Source: Anoplopoma fimbria (taxonomy: Eukaryota; Chordata; Actinopteri; Perciformes; Anoplopomatidae). From it: DNA of 64,000 bases. Below the pieces are notes generated by a model that saw only the letters and a list, made by a program, of their open reading frames with translations, was not told where the DNA came from and searched no databases. The position numbers and the translations under genes were made by a program. The DNA lies in the NCBI RefSeq assembly GCF_027596085.1, contig NC_072460.1:12902326-12966325 (forward strand), in the 5' to 3' direction. Positions 1 through 56,457 of this stretch are shown piece by piece (within the stretch, counting starts at the first letter, position 1; every line of letters begins with the position of its first letter).

Positions 1-675
1 AGTTCAGTGAAACTATTTGAGAAAAATATAAATATTTACAATATAATGTGAGAAAATTCACACTCATCTCTGCTCTATTGTCATGATAGGGCAGTCACTA
101 GATAGATATGATTAGTTCTTTCTATTTTGGATGTAAAATATGTATTATCCAGGAATGGACATCAGGCTAAAAGCAGGAAACCCCCTATAGGGGCCATAAC
201 ATAACTCAACAGCCTGCCTTATGTTCAGGCTTCAAGCCTCACAGAGTGCCAGCTCTTCAGAGCGGCTATTTCCAAATTAAAAGCAGATTGTCAGCTATCA
301 GGACACCAACCGGCAGCTTCATTAAATGTCAGCCAGATGTAAATAGATTGGCTTAAGAAGCTCACCAGGTAAAATATGAAGGCTACAAACTTGACATTGG
401 CATTGAGCTGCCAAATACATAACAAAAGTCTTAACACTCCTGCGTTTGCATTAACACAGATTTGAAAGAGGCTTGGCTTGGGCATGCTTACCACTGGTGA
501 ACTACATGGCTGATAATTAACAGGCCTGCAGACACATCATTTCTGTTGCTGTCAGTGTTCTTAACCAGAGCCCTGAATGTATACACTTAAAGGCTACTTA
601 ATACTACAAACACAAAAAACTGTGAGTTGTGTATAATGTAGACAGATGTGCGTGTATGTATGATATAAAGGATAC
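1..675 (-). other. Part of intron 1 of the cacna1s-like gene
   Basis: This AT-rich stretch follows the splice donor of the cacna1s-like first coding exon (minus-strand GT at 674-675). I looked on the minus strand for the next channel exon, which should begin with the proline-phenylalanine start of transmembrane segment S1, and did not find it. The second exon must lie beyond the left edge. Nothing else is recognised here. Confidence 0.6.
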
Positions 676-857
676 TTCCACTCCACAATGCTGGTGCAGG
701 CCTTGCGGAAGGGATTTTTGAGGTTGAAGAGGAAGAGGGTTCTCGCAGGTCGAGGGTTTCCCCCTGTGGCCTGTAGCTTCTTCAGCTTCTCCCTCTGCTT
801 CCTCTTCAGCTCCTCTTCATTCATGATGACCAACTTGTCCTCTGCGTTGGCCGACAT
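676..857 (-). CDS. cacna1s: L-type voltage-gated calcium channel alpha-1 subunit, first coding exon only (partial gene)
   Basis: This exon encodes about 60 residues of the cytoplasmic N-terminus of a Cav1 channel pore subunit. In the S form this is the voltage sensor of skeletal-muscle excitation-contraction coupling, in the T-tubule membrane. The ATG is at 857. After a charged K/E-rich leader comes the signature block ([13 protein letters not shown], then [10 protein letters not shown]). Cav1 channels carry the same block as R-A-L-F-C-L-T-L-x-N-P-x-R-x-A-C-I-S-I-V-E-W just before segment S1. The exon ends in mid-codon at AA, followed by GTATCC as donor, so the Lys codon is completed by the next exon outside the window. 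The motif fits any Cav1 paralogue. I chose the S type because tmem9 lies just upstream on the same strand, as in human 1q32. Whether it is the a or b fish duplicate cannot be told. Confidence 0.8.
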
Positions 858-901
858 CTTGACGCCTCAAGTAAAGCTCCCAGTCCCGTAGAAGTGTGTC
901 T

Positions 902-25271: not shown

Positions 25272-33256
<7,985 letters not shown>

Positions 33257-37169: not shown

Positions 37170-40100
37170 TCACCCGTTCATGACCATCCTGACCAGTTCT
37201 GCAAAAGAAGAGTCAAAAGAGAGACGACAGGTGTCAGAGTCGTGGTCTAGATTCTGGGTGGGAGATGCTGCATTTGGAGGCAGATCCCCCATATTCTGTT
37301 CACGCAGGAGGAGAGAAGGGTTAAAGATGGTACGGAGAGAAAGAGGTGGGATAATCATCTCTATCTCCTATTAAGCCAAAGCATTTGGCCATGTCTATGA
37401 TCCAAGAAGAGCTGGTTAGAGAAGCCATCCTCGCTGTATGCTTTCCTCTAGTTGAGAAGCAGAGGAAAGGGGAGAAGGTCAAGGGAGCTAAAGTCCAGTC
37501 AGACAGCAGCCAGCTACAAATTCAGCTTCCATAAGTAGAGAGGCGAAAATAATCAGCACAAGAGCAACTCACTGCATTTCTCTGGTTAGTAGAAAAAGGG
37601 ACTGGTCCACTCTCCCAAAGCTGGTGGCAAAATTAAAATGTAAAGAAAATGTCTGCAATGTAATGACCTGTCTATTTTATCGGTTTGAAAAGAGCAGCAC
37701 CTCTAACACCAACAGATGAAAAGGCCTATTTTAATAGTGCCAACGACATGCAAATGAGATTAGAAAAGCTGCCTTGTGACCTCCACACCCATCAGTTCAA
37801 ATAACTCGACAGCGGCCACCAGGCTTTCCCCGAATGAGACCAGTCACTTCTCTGACTGTCCATCATACCCCCTTTTAAACTGAGGGGAGTCTCAGACACA
37901 TGCAGATGGGCATGCGGCAGCCAGGGGCCAAGACAGAGGGCTGTAGGAGAGACAGACAGAACAGCAGGAGGCTACACATGGATCAAAGCCTCAGGACTAA
38001 ATATGAGAGGGACCACGAGGCTTTTTCCGCATGTCAAGTCTACTTGAAGAGTAGAAGAGCACAACTACAGCCAAAAAGTGTTAGGGAGGCCCTAATGGGA
38101 GTGGATTATTTAACAACTAAAATGCAGGAAAGCCTGGGGGTGCAATCTCATGGTATACCAAATGCCCGTACCGGCCTTCAGCCTGACATGATGTGGCGGA
38201 CAAATGCTGTGGAGGAAGAACAGTTAACACACTGTTATACATGACTTCTTACAGCGGTCAATTAACCACACGGGTAAAGACAGATAAAAGACAGTTAACA
38301 GTAACATGGATGGATACCCACATCGTAAGACAAATTAGAGCATTAGCTTACTGTAAGGAGAGTGTAGCAGTTAAAAAAGGGCTTCCAATGACTGCCTTCA
38401 GATAAGTAGGACAGTATATTCCCTAGGTTGACTGCTTTTAACATCACAGAAGAACTTTAAGCCAGAATGAAAGTTTTTTTCAGCCTAACATCATTGAAAC
38501 AGAGGGGCTGATATTGGAAGTTTGCAGACCGCCAGTGTTTAAATGCCATCTTCCTGCTTGCATATACACAAGCTGTGTGCAAAGCCCCTCAGTGAAACAC
38601 AGAGTGGAGGAGAGAAACTAGCATGACAGTAATTTACAACAAAACACAGTTCTGAGTGCATATAAAGTAGTTAAATAAAAAAAGATTTGTTTTTTTCTTT
38701 CAGGGGGGCCAGAAGACCTCTTGAGGGCAATGGTAGGGGAAACACTGTAGGTTTTTACAGAAAACTGAAACTATATCTTCACATAATATTTCACATGTAA
38801 ACACAGCATAATGCATGTCCTGACTGTAGTTTCAGTCCAACATTGCCAAGACTGGGTATGAGGTTTCATTGACAGTAGCAGGTATGTGGCACAGGATTGT
38901 CTCACAACGTTGGCCAAATCATGGCAAGTATCCCATTCTTGTTTATTTCTTTCTCCCTCACCTTCGTAATTGATGCAGCCATTTGCATCTTCGTGTCCCG
39001 CCAAGAGCGTCTCAACTTCCTCTTCTGACATTTTCTCACCTGAAAAGGAAACATTAAAACATTAGTGCAAAAATTCAGCTTCAGCAAACACATTTTGCAC
39101 TGACACTATGCATTGTAGGGACAGCAGTATTTTTGTGTAAGTGAGAACAATTTAAATAGTGTGTATACATGAAATCAAATCAAGATAGCCCTCCCATCGA
39201 GCGGCCTATTCAAGGGTGATAAAAATGCTACTTACCTAGCGTGGTGAGGACGTGACGAAGCTCTGCTCCCATTACTGTGCCGTTGCCCTCCTTGTCAAAG
39301 ACACGCAGTCCCTCCACAAAATCCTCCATGGAGCCCTGATCTTTATTCTTAGCGATGGCCTGGAACATTGGCAGGAACTGCTCAAAGTCTAGCATCTTGC
39401 AGTTCATCTCTGTAAAATAAATAAATAAATATATGTGGAGAGTTTTAGAGCCTCCAGCTGCAAAACACACTACTGCCACCGAAAGATTAGGATCATAAGA
39501 GAATATTTGTTTCAGCACAGTTAAATTAAAAAAAGATAAATCCCATTAATTCTTTATTTATTTTTTTTCTCACCCTCAGACTTGGGGTTGCCCAGGACCT
39601 TGAGCACCTCAGCATTGACAGGGTTCTGTCCCAGGGCCCGCATGACATCCCCGCACTGGCTGAAGCTAATCTTGCCATCTCCTGTCCTGTCGAACAGCAG
39701 GAATGCCTCCTTAAACTCTGCAGGATACACAGACACATGACGAGTTAGGCTAGGGATATGAATTATTGTAAAAAAAAAAAATGTAGAGATCAGCAGACAA
39801 GTATGGAGGAAAAGGTATGGAGATAGTAAGAGACCTGGAAATAGATGAAATCAGAAAAGCCAGTCAATGAGAACAGGCAGACAAGTAAAGCAGAGATTTG
39901 GACATGACCTGGTTTTCAGCTGGTAGGCCTACATTTAAAGTGTACAGGACACACAGCACTAACACATCTGCGTATGTTGCATATATCACTCTAGTCAAAA
40001 TAACTCTTACTGGTTTTCCCCAGGATAAAAGATATATTAATAAATTGCACAAATGTATGGGCAAACCCTAACTCGTGTTCCATGGACATGCTTAGTTCTA

Positions 40101-42619
40101 ACGCTGAAAAAGTATTTTGTACATCTCATTACTGTTATTGTTTGCATGGCAGACTGTGGCGCAACCACTAAAAAACAGCTCGCTCTCTATACTTTGCTGT
40201 TTGACATTGCAAACACCCTTCTAACTTCCTCAATTCAGCAAATTCTGCATGTCCACATTAGTCATCTGGTTTGTCTATGACACCTCGACAAAAACAAGGT
40301 GAAACAACTTCACCAGTGCAACAGTACATGTTCCATCATTGTTGTTGTTCTAGTTTGAACATGCAAAAACTTGTGGTTTAGTTTCCAAAAATATTAAATA
40401 TGTCTGAATATCAGGGTAATGGGTTACAATTGTAATGGTTAATATGTTTATCATGCCTTAAATAAAGAAGGAAAAAAACAGGTATGTATATAGTAAGTTA
40501 GATTTGTTTTAATATAAAACTCTGAAGATAATGCTTAACATAAGGGTAACTGTAAATTAGTTTGTATTACAAACTCTTAGATCAGGAAGGGTGTAAACTC
40601 ATGTTCATGTATCTTAAAAGGTTGCCTTAGATCTAGTGCTTATATTGTGTGACCAAAAGTAAAATGCAGGCAAATCGCATTTGAAAAGCTGTATACAACT
40701 AAATATTTAATAAACAAAATAAAATATTGAATGAATAAACGTTTTGTTTGTAATTGTTGTGAGGCTTTATCCAACAAATACCACAAACTGTACATCATTT
40801 AAGAAATCCAGTTAATCATCTGCATAAATATAGAACAAACAAAACCTATTTGATTAAATAAAGCCAAAGTTATTCAGTAATGCAACCTATCAGTTTAAGA
40901 TAAGGATTATATCAATCCGGTGTCATCTTTAATATCGTGCCCATTTCATGGTATCAATCAAAGAATTAATGTCAGTAGTTCTCCCTGTTTTAGTTATGAA
41001 TATTACCAGATTGTTCTGTCTATATGACAGGATGATTTTGGTTGCTTGTTTCCAAAACCTCATCTGACATCCCTACTGTTTGTTCTACTTTGACATCAAA
41101 GTTTTACAGAACTGTTTAAAAGTCAATAAGGCTGTAAAATACCTAAGCCTTTATTCACATGTCATTCAAGTGGAAATAACTAGGCGTTATCATCTGTCAG
41201 CAATGATCTAATCATGTCAGTGCTCACAAGGTTGAATAATGTAGTTTTGATCCAACATCAGGCCGACTAGTTAGACTCAACAGTCAAACACAAAAGCTTA
41301 GCTAAGATATAGCAATCAGGGAGACATGGAGTCGGATTGCAGCCGTCTGGTCCTTGTGTTATGGGACAAGCTACTGCCCAAAAAGCTCAGGCACTGTTGT
41401 GGAGTTTTTTCCTGTTCTGAGGAATGTGCCTCTTCCCTTCTGGGGTGTGAGCACTTTTCCCAACGCCATATTTGGTAATAGAGGAGTGGAGGAAAGTAGG
41501 AGGAGAGTGAGAGTAGCTATAGCCTATTATGTCAACTTTGTTAAACAAACCAGCCCCGGGACTAAATCATGCATCACTTTATCCCGCACCAAAAAAGGGC
41601 ACGCTGGAAGATGCATCGTTTGGAAGATAACAAGCAAAGTTTATGGAAAACTGACACAACCAGGACTGACTTTTGATAACAGATGTGAGCTTTGGCTACA
41701 TTTATAAGTTCTGCTTATGCATGATTGACCACATACAAAAACACTGCAACACACGGTCAAAGCTGCTAAGTATTATCACGTTGTATGCAAAAATGTGACT
41801 GACTTTAAACGGACCAAGACAACAGTGCAAAGCGACTCGACTTCACAGTTGAGACAGATTGACGTTAGGGTTTCCCAAAGAGCAACATGCAGATCACACC
41901 CTACACACTCCGGTAGAGATAGCTATCAGGGTTGTGCTCAGGCGGTCCCCTTACACTGACTTACCATGAATCTGATCCAGGTTAAACTCAATCTGGAAAG
42001 GACAAGCAGTTGCAAGTGGAAAGGGATGAAACAGTACAGAAATTAAAGGAGGAAATAGTGGCCTTAAAACCAGGACAGCTATGACAGGCGGGCACAGAGC
42101 AGGGTGAGAGTCATCTGGACCAGGCAAGAGTGGAAGCATGCAAAACAAGAGAGATCTGGAAGTAAACTCACCAATAATTTGATCTTCCGAGAAGTCAGAC
42201 TGTTCAGAGAGAAAGCAGGCTACATTATTATGGTGCCCTTTGCATCGCCATACACAGCTAGCTCGGGTTAACTTCACCGCGTCTGGACACATTTTTCGGA
42301 TAGTTACATTTACTCAAAAAAACACATTTCACAACAGGAGCACGTTCAACAACGGTTAGTGTGCACGAGGGTATGTTGACGACGTGAATACGCGTCTCGT
42401 GTGAATGTACATGTTAACCCATCTAGCCTACAAGCTAATGTTAGCTTCTCAAAAGTTGCACTTCCGCTAGCGACCCGCGAGCCAAAAAACCACACATTCA
42501 AACTTAACTTAGCGAATTTGAAAAGCATTTTCTCGAGACAAGAAGCTATCACACCAAACACACAAGAAAAAAAATAGGCCGTTCTAGTCTAAGACGAGGG
42601 GAGCAAGAAAACCCACCAT
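37170..42619 (-). CDS. myl6: Essential myosin light chain MYL6, short isoform (proximal start), complete
   Basis: Spliced minus-strand CDS: 42617-42619 (ATG only), 42172-42199, 39574-39717, 39236-39409, 38962-39039 and 37170-37198. Lengths 3+28+144+174+78+29 give 151 residues, the human MYL6 length, and every junction is GT-AG and in phase. The protein begins [16 protein letters not shown]. It carries EF-hand-type helices around [11 protein letters not shown], the MYL6 block [14 protein letters not shown] and LKVLGNPKS, then [30 protein letters not shown] and [21 protein letters not shown]. It binds the IQ motif of the myosin II heavy-chain lever arm. The C-terminus is the smooth-muscle type (ELVRMVxNG). 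In mammals an alternative exon gives the non-muscle AFVRHILSG end, and I found no such exon in the 1.8 kb intron 37199-38961. The gene converges on c1ql4. Confidence 0.95.
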
Positions 42620-45561
42620 GGCTGTGTTGGCTGAGGTGCGTCCGAGGAGTCGGCAAACCAAAGAATGTGTGATGGCTCTCAGGGAAGGGCTGGGTGACAA
42701 GGAGAAAACCTAGCGGCCTACGGCAGCTTTGCGTCATGACGTACGGCAGTATTGCGTCATGACGTACGACGTTCACGCATGAGGAGGGACAACTACGCTC
42801 CATATATAGGAATAGAGCTCAAGGTATGGCTTGTGATAGCCTATACAGTACAATAAGTGTAGGAGCTATTTATAGGATATTAGTATTTAGTTATTTTATG
42901 CATAAGTAATGTTTAATTATTCTAGATGCAATTGGCCACTACAATAAGTATATGCCTTAACGCTACTTGAACTGCTCACTTTATGATTGAAGTTGGCTAA
43001 ATGAAAATTGCAACTTTTGGAATACAAATGTAATTTAACAGCTGAGTTTACTCCTTTGTAGTGTATTTTATCATATTCTGCTATACCTTGCTGCACTGAG
43101 GCCATGCAGTTGTTGCATGCTGTGTGATGTTGAGCGTTTAGGTACTCAGGAACTGCCCTAACAATGACCTCATGAACAACACACGACATGACAACCTTGT
43201 TTATAGTGATGTTTACACAGATGGAAGATTCTAGGTTCTCAGGAATGTATTTCAAAAGGTATATGTCTCAAGATGTCTGAATGATGTATGTACTGCTCAA
43301 TATGTTTTATGCCTTTGTGCACATTGAGGGGATGCACAACATAGATATGAGTTCAGACTGAAGGCTGAGAGCCTCAGTCCATGCTGAATCTCTGTATTGG
43401 ATATTGATTCAATAAAGAAATTGTTGAAACTGCATCAATGGACCTGGACATCTTCCTTTATCCTTTGATATCAACTTATATACTACACCTTAACAGACAA
43501 AGGTGAGAAGGCCTTAATGTAACCTATTCTGATCATCCTGCCTTTACATGAATAGTGAACGGATTTAAATACTTAAAGCCCCCCCCCATCACTCAGGAAT
43601 ACGTGTTGCTTTGCTTCTCATGCTCACCTTAAACCCGAGTCTAAGGCAAGTATGATTGTGTGACGTCACAATTAGTGTTTGAAATTGGAATTCTTCAATG
43701 CACAAACGGAGTGAGCTAGAGAACGAAATCAGTGAAGAGGTACACATCATGTGTCAGGTATAGTTAAATAGGCTGGTAAATCCTCATGGTTTCCGGATTA
43801 AGAACTTTTATAGAGTTTCACTGGTTTAGAGTAGAAACCATATCAGACACAAGTTATCCTTGCAAGGACAGTATTTATCTCAAATTAGATTTTTAATATA
43901 TATTAAATTAAAGCAGCTTGCGCTTAACCTTACAAAGTAGGCAGTGAGTCAATGGACCCTATGTTAAATTATGTGTGTTTTGATTAAGACATTATTTTAA
44001 AGATGTTTTAATAAATCGTTGTCCCTTTGTGGTGTGTGTTTGACTTTGATCCCACTTGGATAAATGAATGCATGATTGCAATAAGGAATATGAGTGTCTG
44101 GCCGTGCAGGAATGATGGATTACTTTAGGCCTGTGAGATCATGGACTGATCCCATTTATTTTAGCAGCGTGGCTAAAACTCTGTCTTTGCCCAGTAGGAA
44201 CTCTGGCCTACATGTCACGTCCGTGGTCCCACTGTAAGCAGAAGTGGATTACTTAACATGGCCCACATAGCCTCACAGGCTAAATGGGACAGTCTCGCTC
44301 CATAAAATCGTGCAGTAACAGCATCACAGTGTAATACTTAAAGCACATGAAGATGGCAGCAAAGCTAAAGCATGAACAATGATGAAGCATATAAGTACAA
44401 AGTCTAATGTGGGCATCTTTGACCTGAAAACACCAATAGCTCGGACTTATGAAATGTTAACATGATTTATTTGGTCAAGGAACTTACTTAGTTAACTAAA
44501 TTCCTATATTTATTGATATTTTATATTTTTTTCTTAATGTATCAACTTAATATTTACTTCATTTTTAAAGTATACAATATAGAAGACAGTTTCTAAATAA
44601 TCACATCCTCTTTGCTCAATGCCTTATTGCCTTATGTGTTGTATAACATAAGCAGCCAACATTTGTCACTACAAAGATTTGAGGCTGTACTATATCTGTA
44701 ATATGACTGTAAACAAAACGCCCCATGTCGGTCATTTTATATCTGTGATGTATCTCTAACGAGCTGTTATTTCAGTCACATGACAGAAGTATGGGGAGGT
44801 CCATTCTCTTTGCAGCCAGTTTCTAGCTTTGAAAAATGGGGCAAGTAAAACCTCTCTAAATTATTAATGAAGTGAAGAATAAAAATGTCCTCAGTTTGAA
44901 TTTTAAATTGGAGATTTGTCTTGTTATTCTGATCCTAATAATAGCGCTTGTATTAATAGGTGTGTAGGTCACATTCATTTGTTGGAATCTCCTTCTTGAT
45001 GAAATAAATAGCACACACTGTGGCAGAAAACAGCCTCTTTATCCCTAAGGAGGTCACTGACTGACATTCTCACTTTCAGCCTTTCAGCGCCCCATTTCTT
45101 CACTTAGCTTAGATTCAGTCTCATTCCAGATTGATGCTGACAGTTTATTAGCATCAGTATTGTAGTAAGCTACTTTGCAACTAATCAGCATAGCATGTTT
45201 TTACAGAACTAACTGGCAAACAAATTACTGTTTTGATTTACCATCTTGCTAAGATACCTTGACACCATACATGAAATCATAGATGAGATGAATAGGACAT
45301 GGCGTTTTTAGACATAGTCTTAATTTAGTGAATGCCCCACATTAGCTTTGTCATCAAAAGCTTATTGCAGTAAACTCCACTCACCTCCAAAGCAGTGGGG
45401 TCAAATGGTGAATCCGAAGGACGCAGCATCCTAGGTTTCTGCTCTAGAGCCGGTTTTGGATCTACATGAGCCACAGGAATGCAGGGGTAAGGAGGACCCA
45501 GTCTGGGTTGGGTCACCGGTGAAGGAGACTTCTTAATGGAGGATTCTCTTTTAGGAGCCAT
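37170..45561 (-). CDS. myl6: Essential myosin light chain, long isoform (distal start, MYL6B/A1-like) of the same gene
   Basis: An upstream exon at 45385-45561 (59 codons, phase 0 end, GAG|GTGAGT) starts [11 protein letters not shown] and ends SPFDPTALE. Joined to exon 41965-41992 and the shared exons it gives 209 residues in frame. Human MYL6B has about 208. 'A1'-type light chains (MYL1, MYL3, MYL4, MYL6B) all have a MAPK/MPPK-type basic start and a proline-rich arm. That arm runs into an FDP/DLS...IEF..xQ..EFKEAF junction, and here the junction reads FDPTALE then IEFNLDQIH. This arm is rich in Pro and Lys but lacks the long Ala-Pro repeat. In the family the arm touches actin. The splice pairing is inferred from phase, motif and the MYL1 precedent. 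No transcript is available. Confidence 0.8.
37199..38961 (-). other. Last intron of myl6
   Basis: No coding exon is recognised. I looked specifically for a 44-45-base alternative exon encoding an AFV-[KR]-H-type tail with a stop and found none with proper splice sites. Confidence 0.5.
39718..41964 (-). other. Intron between the alternative exons and shared exon 3 of myl6
   Basis: This AT-rich intron holds the CArG box noted separately and a more GC-balanced segment at 41330-41700 around it. An open plus-strand frame at 41354-41707 has no family motif and is not called as a gene. Confidence 0.55.
41466..41475. promoter_or_regulatory. Perfect CArG box in myl6 intron
   Basis: CCATATTTGG matches the serum response factor consensus CC(A/T)6GG exactly. 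It lies in the intron after exon B, about 1.15 kb downstream of the proximal start. SRF drives smooth-muscle and cytoskeletal genes. Activity here is inferred. Confidence 0.5.
41965..41992 (-). other. myl6: myl6 alternative 28-nt exon B (long-form type)
   Basis: Bounded by TTTCCAG and G|GTAAGT, the exon encodes IEFNLDQIH plus one base completing Glu. The sequence matches the IEF-x-x-x-Q junction of long essential light chains (for example IEFNKDQLE in human MYL6B). It is exactly as long as exon A, 179 bases away, and in the same phase. Confidence 0.85.
42172..42199 (-). other. myl6: myl6 alternative 28-nt exon A (short-form type)
   Basis: Bounded by TCTCTCTGAACAG and G|GTGAGT, the exon encodes SDFSEDQII plus one base completing Glu. 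It corresponds to CDFTEDQTA of human MYL6. It shares F and DQI at the same positions with exon B, as expected of an old tandem exon duplication. Confidence 0.9.
42721..42875 (-). promoter_or_regulatory. Proximal myl6 promoter: tandem CRE-like repeats, TATA/CArG-like and MEF2 motifs
   Basis: Two 23-bp direct repeats (42721-42743 and 42744-42766, two mismatches) each carry the palindrome CGTCATGACG followed by TAC. This gives paired ATF/CREB half-sites (TGACG). About 35 bp farther from the gene lies CCATATATAGG (42800-42810). It is both a minus-strand TATA-like sequence and a near-CArG box with seven A/T bases instead of six. CTATTTATAG (42866-42875) fits the MEF2 consensus YTA(A/T)4TAR. All lie within 260 bp upstream of the short-form ATG. 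Motifs are seen; function is inferred. Confidence 0.45.
42876..45384 (-). other. Intron separating the two myl6 starts
   Basis: This 2.5 kb interval lies between the distal exon and the proximal promoter. A stretch at 43250-43440 ending near a plus-strand AATAAA (43411-43416) resembles the end of an old inserted sequence, but I cannot identify it. Nothing else is recognised. Confidence 0.45.
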
Positions 45562-46061
45562 TCCTAACGTCCTGGGCAGCCAGAAACTTCAAATCTCTGC
45601 ACAAGCTGCTGGTATGGGCTGCTGAGAGGAGGTATCAAGCTATGAATAAAGTGTGTCGGTTGTGCTGCTCCTGTGGAGCTGAGGGGAGGGGAGAGGAAAA
45701 GCAGGTTGATGATGCCGATGGTGCTCAGGGAGCAGTTGGATGAGGCAGAGGTGGACATAAAGAATAGCATTCGAGTGAATTTGTCAAGCAAAGCGTAGGA
45801 GGAGTAGAGATGAAAGCTCGAATGTATGAAGAGGGGGATCGATATAGAAAGAAGTAGACTCAGCTGTATGACTCCAAGCGCATGCTTTTATTTGGGTCAG
45901 AAATGTGTGTGAGTGTGTGTGTGTGTGTGTGCGTGTGTGTGTGTTGGGGCTCAATTGAAAGATTTTAGCCAAAAGCCTATTTTTCAGACTCATTAAGAGA
46001 TGTTATAAGGAGTGTCATATATTCTGTGTCTCATTACAAACCAGCATGTAGCTAATAATAA
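45562..46061 (-). promoter_or_regulatory. Candidate distal (long-form) myl6 promoter
   Basis: Upstream of the long-form ATG on the minus strand lie a CAGCTG E-box (45861-45866), a CAGTTG E-box near 45733 and a MEF2-consensus sequence CTAATAATAA (46052-46061). The combination is typical of striated-muscle light-chain promoters. A TG microsatellite (about 45905-45945) lies between them. No clear TATA box is seen. The role is inferred. Confidence 0.3.
45905..45945 (+). repeat. TG dinucleotide microsatellite
   Basis: About 20 TG/GT units with one GCG interruption are visible. Confidence 0.9.
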
Positions 46062-55386: not shown

Positions 55387-56457
55387 ATGATGACCAAACA
55401 ATATGGAAAGAGTGGGGATGTGAGCGAGCTGGTGAGCTCCCTCGGCTGGCTGGAGGAGGATGACGGCAGCTCTCAGGATGGAGAGGAAAGCCATGGTCTG
55501 ACTGTAGATGGACGAATCCACTCCTGCACAGAACTGGGCAGTGAGGATATGGAGGAAGAGGAGGAGGAGGAGGATGATGAGGAGCAGGAGATTGGACCAA
55601 ATGGAGAACAGGCTCCAAAAAGGAGAGGCCCTAAAAGGAAGAAGATGACCAAAGCCAGACAGGAGAGATTTCGTGCCCGGCGAACCAAAGCCAACGCCAG
55701 GGAACGCTCACGTATGCACGGACTGAACGATGCCCTGGAAAGTCTGCGCAGAGTGATGCCCTGCTTCTCCAAGACACAGAAGCTGTCAAAGATCGAGACT
55801 CTGCGGCTTGCACGCAACTACATCTGGGCTCTGTCGGAGTCGCTTGAGAGTGGCCAGTCCCCTGAGAGTCATGGCTTTGTGGAGATGCTGTGTAAAGGTC
55901 TGTCTCAGCCTACCAGCAACCTCCTGGCCGGCTGCTTGCAGCTGGGACCCAGTCCAGTGATGCTCACCAAGATGGACGATAAGTGTGGCGGCCCGGGGTT
56001 GGGGTTGGGTGGTGTGGGGGGTCAGGCTGGCCATCCTCTCAGCTACCCGTCTCCAGGCCTTCCCAGCCCCCCCTATGGCTCCCTGGAGGCTTCCCACCTC
56101 CTCCACATGAAGGGATTCAAAGGGTCTGTGTATGACAACCCCTCCCCTAACGAGTGCAGCAGCGGCACTCCACCATACGACGGGCCCCTCACTCCCCCAC
56201 TGAGCATCAGTGGCAACTTTGCCCTGAAGCAGGAGCCCTCTCCCCGTGAGTCAGAGAGGACCTACACATCCCACCCTGGCCACCATGCCCACTACCTCTC
56301 GTCCCACCATTACCCCACTTCCACGACTGGGGGCCTACCAGGAGGTCCTCAGGGCCACCCACTTTTTCAAGCTGCACGCTACGAGCTGCCCCTGGACGTG
56401 GCCTTTGACTCCTATAACACGTCTCACCTGGTCGCCTCTCACATGGGCAGCATCTGA
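55387..56457 (+). CDS. neurod4: NeuroD4 (Atoh3/Math3) proneural bHLH transcription factor
   Basis: A single coding exon of 356 residues; two consecutive ATGs (55387, 55390) follow the acceptor by six bases and I use the first. Features in order: an acidic run of Glu/Asp at about 52-68; a nuclear-localisation-like [10 protein letters not shown] (78-87); then the bHLH at about 97-152. The basic part is [14 protein letters not shown], with the E-box-contacting Glu, and the helices are [11 protein letters not shown] and [20 protein letters not shown]. The NeuroD-specific domain follows, with the type 4 signature [17 protein letters not shown] and AGCLQLGP, then [10 protein letters not shown] and the [20 protein letters not shown] block. 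It binds CANNTG sites as a heterodimer with E proteins and promotes neuronal differentiation, including in retina and cranial ganglia. The middle has a Gly-rich insert near 199-215. Human is about 331 residues, so this copy is slightly long but intact. Confidence 0.96.

What the first reader, a model, noticed from the sequence alone, without database searches (positions are those of the whole stretch)
37170..45561. One fish myl6 gene appears to encode both MYL6 and a MYL6B-like long light chain from two starts
Seen in sequence: a distal exon (45385-45561) with an A1-type N-terminus, a proximal exon that is just the ATG (42617-42619), two 28-nt exons, and a shared MYL6-type body. Phases fit 1L + exon B + body (209 residues) and 1S + exon A + body (151 residues). 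Established knowledge: the fast-muscle gene MYL1 makes MLC1f and MLC3f with this same nested order of exons. In mammals MYL6B and MYL6 are two adjacent genes on 12q13. Inference: the fish locus keeps an ancestral two-promoter gene, and the mammalian pair arose by tandem duplication in which each copy kept one start. That would be a clear case of splice isoforms becoming separate genes.
Basis: partly seen in the sequence, partly recalled or inferred. Interest (0 to 1): 0.85.

Follow-up and report, generated by a model that had tools for sequence, protein, structure and literature searches.

The report
Fish myl6 gene with two starts
This fish myosin light-chain gene has two alternative beginnings, which would let one gene make the protein forms that mammals and reptiles make from two neighbouring genes, MYL6 and MYL6B; the split into two genes probably happened in the ancestor of reptiles and mammals.

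Summary
1L+B+body gives 209 residues, 1S+A+body 151. All four start/A/B pairings stay in frame; 14 of 39 classifiable ray-finned long forms are predicted as 1L+A. Databases already list such long forms, mostly as 'myosin light polypeptide 6 isoform Xn', in teleosts, bichir, sturgeon, coelacanth, lungfish and amphibians. MYL6B with a diverged body appears in placentals, marsupials, turtles and squamates. A tree of the shared exons joins amniote MYL6 and MYL6B (86/87), each copy holding mammals and sauropsids, so the split is best placed on the amniote stem, not in mammals; AU tests exclude neither an earlier nor a mammalian split. Predicted MYL6B-MYL6 chimaeras in snakes and mammals, and published cattle junction reads, suggest the two genes still splice together. 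I saw no fish RNA and no shark.

The parts
45385..45561 (-). distal coding first exon 1L, A1-type N-terminal extension (59 codons from ATG)
   Evidence: open from ATG to a GTGAGT donor; 54/59 identical to Cyclopterus long form
45562..45962 (-). presumed distal promoter and 5' UTR; not CpG-rich (o/e 0.47); one E-box CAGCTG at 45866-45861
   Evidence: promoter role inferred, consensus motif only
42617..42619 (-). proximal start exon 1S, coding part is ATG only
   Evidence: ATG followed by GTGGGT donor; of the ray-finned rows that start Met + 9-residue exon, 6 of 6 have exon A
42470..42870 (-). presumed proximal promoter; CpG o/e 0.91; a neighbouring window (from 42351) has 0.98, the highest of the 400-nt windows with GC over 0.48; repeated TACGTCATGACGCAA CRE-like motif
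   Evidence: promoter role inferred
42172..42199 (-). 28-nt exon A (SDFSEDQII), MYL6/MLC3 type
   Evidence: AG acceptor, GT donor
41965..41992 (-). 28-nt exon B (IEFNLDQIH), MYL6B/MLC1 type; similar to A (15/28 nt, shuffle p 0.002)
39574..39717 (-). shared exon 2
39236..39409 (-). shared exon 3
38962..39039 (-). shared exon 4
38178..38206 (-). alternative last exon 5, smooth-muscle-type end [13 protein letters not shown]
   Evidence: in frame with exon 4; similar to exon 6 (16/29 nt, shuffle p 5e-5)
37170..37198 (-). alternative last coding exon 6, non-muscle-type end [13 protein letters not shown]
   Evidence: in frame with exon 4

Best explanation
This is a single fish myl6 gene with two transcription starts. 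A distal start adds an A1-like N-terminal extension (actin-binding in known A1 chains) and gives a MYL6B-like long essential light chain; a proximal CpG-rich start gives the ordinary 151-residue MYL6. A pair of out-of-phase 28-nt exons (A or B) and a pair of alternative last exons add further forms. This is the ancestral state of bony vertebrates. In the amniote stem the gene was most likely duplicated in tandem; the upstream copy kept the distal start, exon B and the smooth-muscle-type last exon and became MYL6B, while the downstream copy kept the proximal start, exon A and both last exons and became MYL6. Shown: the exon anatomy, its recurrence as predicted isoforms in other non-amniotes, and the two diverged bodies in amniotes. 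Inferred: promoter use, the tandem duplication, its date, and the reciprocal losses.
For: Exons, phases and splice sites. Long form predicted, mostly as an isoform of a MYL6 gene, in many teleosts and in bichir, sturgeon, coelacanth, lungfish, frogs and salamanders, and in gar. Tree: MYL6 98/91, MYL6B 95/93, the two joined 86/87 outside amphibians, lungfish, coelacanth and ray-finned fish; 87/89 with MYL1 added. Body site 78 is Y in 23 of 23 amniote rows and F in 20 of 21 others. Of 103 non-fused MYL6B-bodied rows, 86 end in the smooth-muscle type, 5 in the non-muscle type of MYL6, 12 otherwise. Chimaeric models: 5 rows join the MYL6B extension and exon B to MYL6 exon 2 (Echinops, Loxodonta, Muntiacus, Liasis, Ahaetulla), 5 leave MYL6B after exon 2 (Felis, Pteropus twice, Panthera, Phocoena). 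Cattle RNA-seq: junction reads from MYL6B exon 3 to MYL6 exon 4, 96 (butyrate) and 135 (control) normalised counts (PMC3375255, section 7 read). MYL6B is in the muscle-contraction gene list of the lizard tail (PMC4139331, passages).
Against: No RNA from this fish or any fish was read; long forms in databases are mostly gene predictions. Only 131 alignable columns; AU tests do not reject MYL6+amphibian (p 0.30, 0.22), MYL6B+amphibian (0.24), MYL6+amphibian+lobe-fin (0.20), MYL6B outside all others (0.076) or a mammal-only pair (0.094). With MYL1 added, the deep order is not the species order (lungfish first, fish inside). 5 of 103 MYL6B-bodied rows carry the non-muscle end, read here as chimaeras with MYL6, not tested. 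The searches listed no shark, lamprey or crocodile row and only a short chicken MYL6; each list was cut at 120.
Confidence: 0.78

Rival explanations
1. The duplication is older than tetrapods; a separate MYL6B gene was lost in ray-finned fish, lobe-fins and amphibians, and the two-start gene of those groups is the surviving copy.
For: AU tests do not reject trees of this kind: p 0.30/0.22 for MYL6+amphibian, 0.20 for MYL6+amphibian+lobe-fin, 0.076 for MYL6B outside all.
Against: Needs several separate losses, and still needs a two-start ancestor; best trees join the amniote copies at 86/87 and 87/89; shared site 78.
Confidence: 0.15
2. The distal exon is a conserved but minor or non-productive start; fish make little long light chain and the proximal start does the work.
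For: No fish RNA read; no CpG peak at the distal exon (o/e 0.47); 14 of 39 classifiable long forms use exon A rather than B.
Against: The 59-aa reading frame is conserved: 54, 53, 48, 48, 44 of 59 in Cyclopterus, stickleback, Scomber, Stegastes, Lepidogalaxias, 39 in Anguilla, 35 in Scleropages and 33 in gar after gapped alignment, though only 19-20 in bichir and sturgeon.
Confidence: 0.15
3. The duplication is mammalian.
For: AU p 0.094 for mammal copies as one clade, not formally rejected.
Against: MYL6B-type body in turtles and squamates groups with mammalian MYL6B at 95/93; two successive bodies in turtle and rattlesnake fused models; this reading also needs a second, sauropsid duplication, whose clade the AU test rejects (p 0.014).
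Confidence: 0.03

Closest known systems
MYL1 (MLC1f/MLC3f), the fast-muscle alkali light-chain gene
   Same: Nested order of distal long start, proximal short start, two small alternative exons, shared body (MYL1 order recalled, from no call); MYL1 long form has a MAPKK start and IEFSKEQQD at the exon B place (PDB 6ysy).
   Different: The body here is MYL6-type, the proximal start exon codes only for Met, and there are two alternative last exons of the MYL6 kind.
Amniote MYL6
   Same: 151-residue short form, exon A type, smooth-muscle and non-muscle last exons; the best solved relatives are MYL6 chains.
   Different: Fish gene also has the distal start and exon B; amniote MYL6 residues I98 and V118 of the body (8 of 8 rows) are L and L in the fish.
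Amniote MYL6B (MLC1sa)
   Same: N-terminal extension and exon B type.
   Different: MYL6B-specific body residues R53 and V54 (15 of 15 rows) are M and L in the fish.
Duplicate genes that share out ancestral splice forms (mitf in fish, SKI7/HBS1 in fungi)
   Same: Function-sharing after duplication of a gene with alternative forms (PMC5306129, passages, with the mitf paper seen only as a reference title; PMC3597508, start of abstract in a listing).
   Different: Here the copies are neighbours and appear to be still spliced together in living amniotes.

Membership tests
myosin essential light chain, MYL6 type | EF-hand body closest to MYL6 | tested here: met
   best solved-structure matches are MYL6 chains; EF-hand Pfam families above cut-off; body groups with MYL6/MYL6B apart from three MYL1 rows, 100/99
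myosin essential light chain, MYL6 type | alternative smooth-muscle and non-muscle last exons | tested here: met
   exons 5 and 6 both in frame with AG acceptors
MYL1-type two-start gene | distal long and proximal short first exons upstream of one shared body | tested here: met
   exon order and phases; one body copy in the window
MYL1-type two-start gene | two transcription starts in use | not testable with these tools
   needs 5'-end or long-read RNA
MYL1-type two-start gene | long start joins exon B, short start joins exon A, strictly | tested here: inconclusive
   of 96 ray-finned rows, 25 long with B, 14 long with A, 6 Met-start with A, 0 Met-start with B, 51 not classifiable
amniote MYL6B | A1-type extension plus exon B | tested here: met
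amniote MYL6B | MYL6B-specific body (R53, V54) | tested here: not met
   fish body has M53, L54; on the best tree it is a co-orthologue of both amniote genes, not MYL6B

The most novel reading that the evidence does not exclude
The two-start layout predates the split of MYL1 and MYL6 and is the original form of the vertebrate essential light-chain gene; on the amniote stem the MYL6 copy was duplicated in tandem and its two starts were shared out between two genes, which are still partly one transcription unit, because MYL6B exons splice onto the MYL6 body in living mammals and snakes and so remake the fish form.
Probability: 0.55. Interest if true: 0.6.

Novelty: new member of a known kind. 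Interest (0 to 1): 0.5.

Why it matters
It would give a datable case of splice forms becoming separate genes, with living species on both sides of the event and chimaeric transcripts that still bridge the two genes. It also warns that fish may have no one-to-one MYL6B, so that mammalian MYL6B work would have to be carried over to the distal start of fish myl6 instead of a separate gene.

Tried and rejected
A placental-only origin of the pair was first suggested by Loxodonta (P0101) and Echinops (P0083) models that join the extension to a MYL6 body; rejected because afrotherians (Loxodonta P0185, Dugong, Orycteropus, Tenrec), marsupials, turtles and squamates also have MYL6B with its own body, so I read those models as read-through chimaeras. 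Promoter motif scans (MEF2, CArG-like, E-box) gave single sites that chance can explain; I use only the CpG contrast. Ten paper searches showed no statement of this history in the titles and abstract starts listed; I looked inside 7 held papers, by passages or one section. Four look-ups of three papers, a 1990 work on human MLC1sa/MLC3nm (recalled), Abascal 2015 and Lambert 2015, were not held, so an earlier proposal cannot be excluded. Each homologue search lists only its best 120 clusters, so absence of sharks and most birds and crocodiles from them means nothing.

The trees used 41 hand-picked proteins of the 238 listed, plus the window's own: two fused models gave two rows each, so 44 rows; three MYL1 rows were added. 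They were chosen for spread of taxa and complete bodies. The Loxodonta body count printed is inflated by a one-residue insertion and is not used; the ungapped 22 of 59 for Anguilla is likewise replaced by 39.

Full report
What is there. The minus strand from 45561 to 37170 holds one essential myosin light-chain gene. Reading the DNA and joining exons gives nine coding exons: 1L (177 nt), 1S (ATG only), A (28 nt), B (28 nt), 2 (144 nt), 3 (174 nt), 4 (78 nt), and two alternative ends, 5 (29 nt, AFVRHIMSG) and 6 (29 nt, ELVRMVMNG). All internal junctions are GT-AG. 1L+B+body is 209 residues and 1S+A+body is 151 residues, with either end. 1L+A and 1S+B are also open, while A and B together shift the frame, so the phases enforce one 28-nt exon per message but do not say which start takes which. 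Exons A and B resemble each other (15 of 28 nt, shuffle p 0.002) and so do exons 5 and 6 (16 of 29, p 5e-5), which fits two tandem exon duplications.

It is not chance and not unique. The 209-residue product finds full-length relatives, many labelled 'myosin light polypeptide 6 isoform Xn', in teleosts, at 94% in Cyclopterus lumpus and 93% in Scomber. The 59-residue distal exon is 54 of 59 identical in Cyclopterus, 53 in stickleback, 48 in Scomber and in Stegastes, 44 in Lepidogalaxias, 39 in Anguilla, 35 in Scleropages, 33 in gar, and only 20 in sturgeon and 19 in bichir (gapped). Long forms with a more MYL6B-like extension occur in bichir, sturgeon, paddlefish, coelacanth, lungfish, frogs and salamanders, named as isoforms of a MYL6 or MYL6-like gene. 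A goldfish muscle transcriptome paper lists myl6 and no myl6b among its light chains (PMC6290348, passages).

Of 96 ray-finned rows that I classified, 25 show 1L+B, 14 show 1L+A, 6 start with Met and exon A, none with Met and exon B, and 51 could not be classified, many of them odd gene models. Most of these are predictions, so the real use of each junction is open.

Promoters. The 400 nt around the proximal ATG have a CpG observed/expected ratio of 0.91, with 0.98 in a neighbouring window, the highest among 400-nt windows with GC over 0.48 in the 64 kb; the distal upstream region has 0.47 against 0.36 for the whole window. This fits a broadly used proximal start and a tissue-restricted distal one, but this is inference; there is no RNA.

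Amniotes have two genes. Searches with a bear MYL6B model (P0109, itself with a MYL6-type last exon) and a python chimaera (P0110) list MYL6B with its own body in placentals including afrotherians and xenarthrans, in marsupials, turtles, lizards, geckos and snakes. Nine fused models, among them a turtle, a rattlesnake and a squirrel, contain two successive bodies, as expected of tandem neighbours. Of the 103 non-fused rows with a MYL6B-type body, 86 end in the smooth-muscle type, 5 in the non-muscle type and 12 otherwise.

Date of the split. A tree of the shared exons (44 rows, 131 columns) has amniote MYL6 (98/91) and MYL6B (95/93), each with mammals and sauropsids, joined at 86/87, with amphibians, lungfish, coelacanth and ray-finned fish outside. 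Adding three MYL1 bodies keeps the union at 87/89 and separates MYL1 from the rest at 100/99, but then lungfish falls first and ray-finned fish inside, so the deep order is not resolved. AU tests reject a sauropsid-only duplication (p 0.014), leave a mammal-only one at 0.094, and do not reject earlier splits: MYL6+amphibian 0.30 and 0.22, MYL6B+amphibian 0.24, MYL6+amphibian+lobe-fins 0.20, MYL6B outside all 0.076. Body site 78 is Y in 23 of 23 amniote rows against F in 20 of 21 others. Parsimony adds weight, because an older split needs several losses of a whole gene. I put the split on the amniote stem with moderate confidence.

The two amniote genes appear still coupled. Five models (Echinops, Loxodonta, Muntiacus, Liasis, Ahaetulla) join the MYL6B extension and exon B to exon 2 of MYL6; five others (Felis, two of Pteropus, Panthera, Phocoena) leave MYL6B after exon 2. 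In cattle cells a published RNA-seq study counted 96 (butyrate) and 135 (control) normalised junction reads from MYL6B exon 3 to MYL6 exon 4; its RT-PCR check was of another gene pair (PMC3375255, section 7 read). The first kind of chimaera has the layout of the fish long form, remade from two genes.

Deeper origin. MYL1, MYL4 and MYL6 lie on human 2q, 17q and 12q, chromosomes that bear HOX clusters, and form one cluster with insect homologues apart from MYL2 and MYL7, with MYL6 branching outside MYL1 and MYL4 (87% bootstrap; PMC2235844, passages). If MYL1 and MYL6, on the two sides of that branching, both have the nested two-start layout, the layout is most simply ancestral to the family. The MYL1 gene order itself is recalled; what I saw is that the MYL1 long form has an IEF-type stretch at the exon B place.

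Known or new. Gene organisation of this kind is known from MYL1 (recalled), and isoform sharing after duplication is a known model (PMC5306129, passages). The long fish isoforms are already in databases. I saw no paper that states the MYL6/MYL6B history, in ten searches of one open library where I saw listings only for most hits; a 1990 study that may bear on it was not held. I therefore call it a new member of a known kind, with an evolutionary reading that is worth testing.

Noticed in passing
window 55411-56442, + strand: Intact-looking neuronal bHLH gene (HLH and Neuro_bHLH Pfam domains), NEUROD4-like by recall; NEUROD4 lies on human 12q13, as MYL6 does (recalled for NEUROD4).
   Followed up: partly
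window 25272-26084, + strand: Exon with a C1q domain and a collagen match under its cut-off, C1QL4-like by recall, also a 12q13 gene in humans (recalled).
   Followed up: partly
window 594-866, - strand: Short frame that resembles the N-terminus of an L-type calcium channel alpha-1 subunit by recall; no Pfam match.
   Followed up: no
proteins P0215, P0219, P0225, P0228 and others: UniRef names several squamate MYL6B proteins 'Calglandulin', which looks like a propagated wrong name.
   Followed up: no
proteins P0059, P0061, P0062, P0065, P0070: Fish models that appear to include both 28-nt exons, with exon A read in another frame before exon B; double inclusion or model error.
   Followed up: no
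proteins P0005-P0054 against P0074, P0092: In gar and the teleosts printed, the extension lacks the Ala/Pro/Lys linker of bichir, coelacanth and tetrapods and has a conserved RLGPP...PSD.PFDP stretch instead.
   Followed up: no
proteins P0109, P0131, P0158, P0166, P0193: Five mammalian models with a MYL6B-type body end in the non-muscle-type exon otherwise seen in MYL6, as if MYL6B also spliced onto the last exon of MYL6.
   Followed up: no
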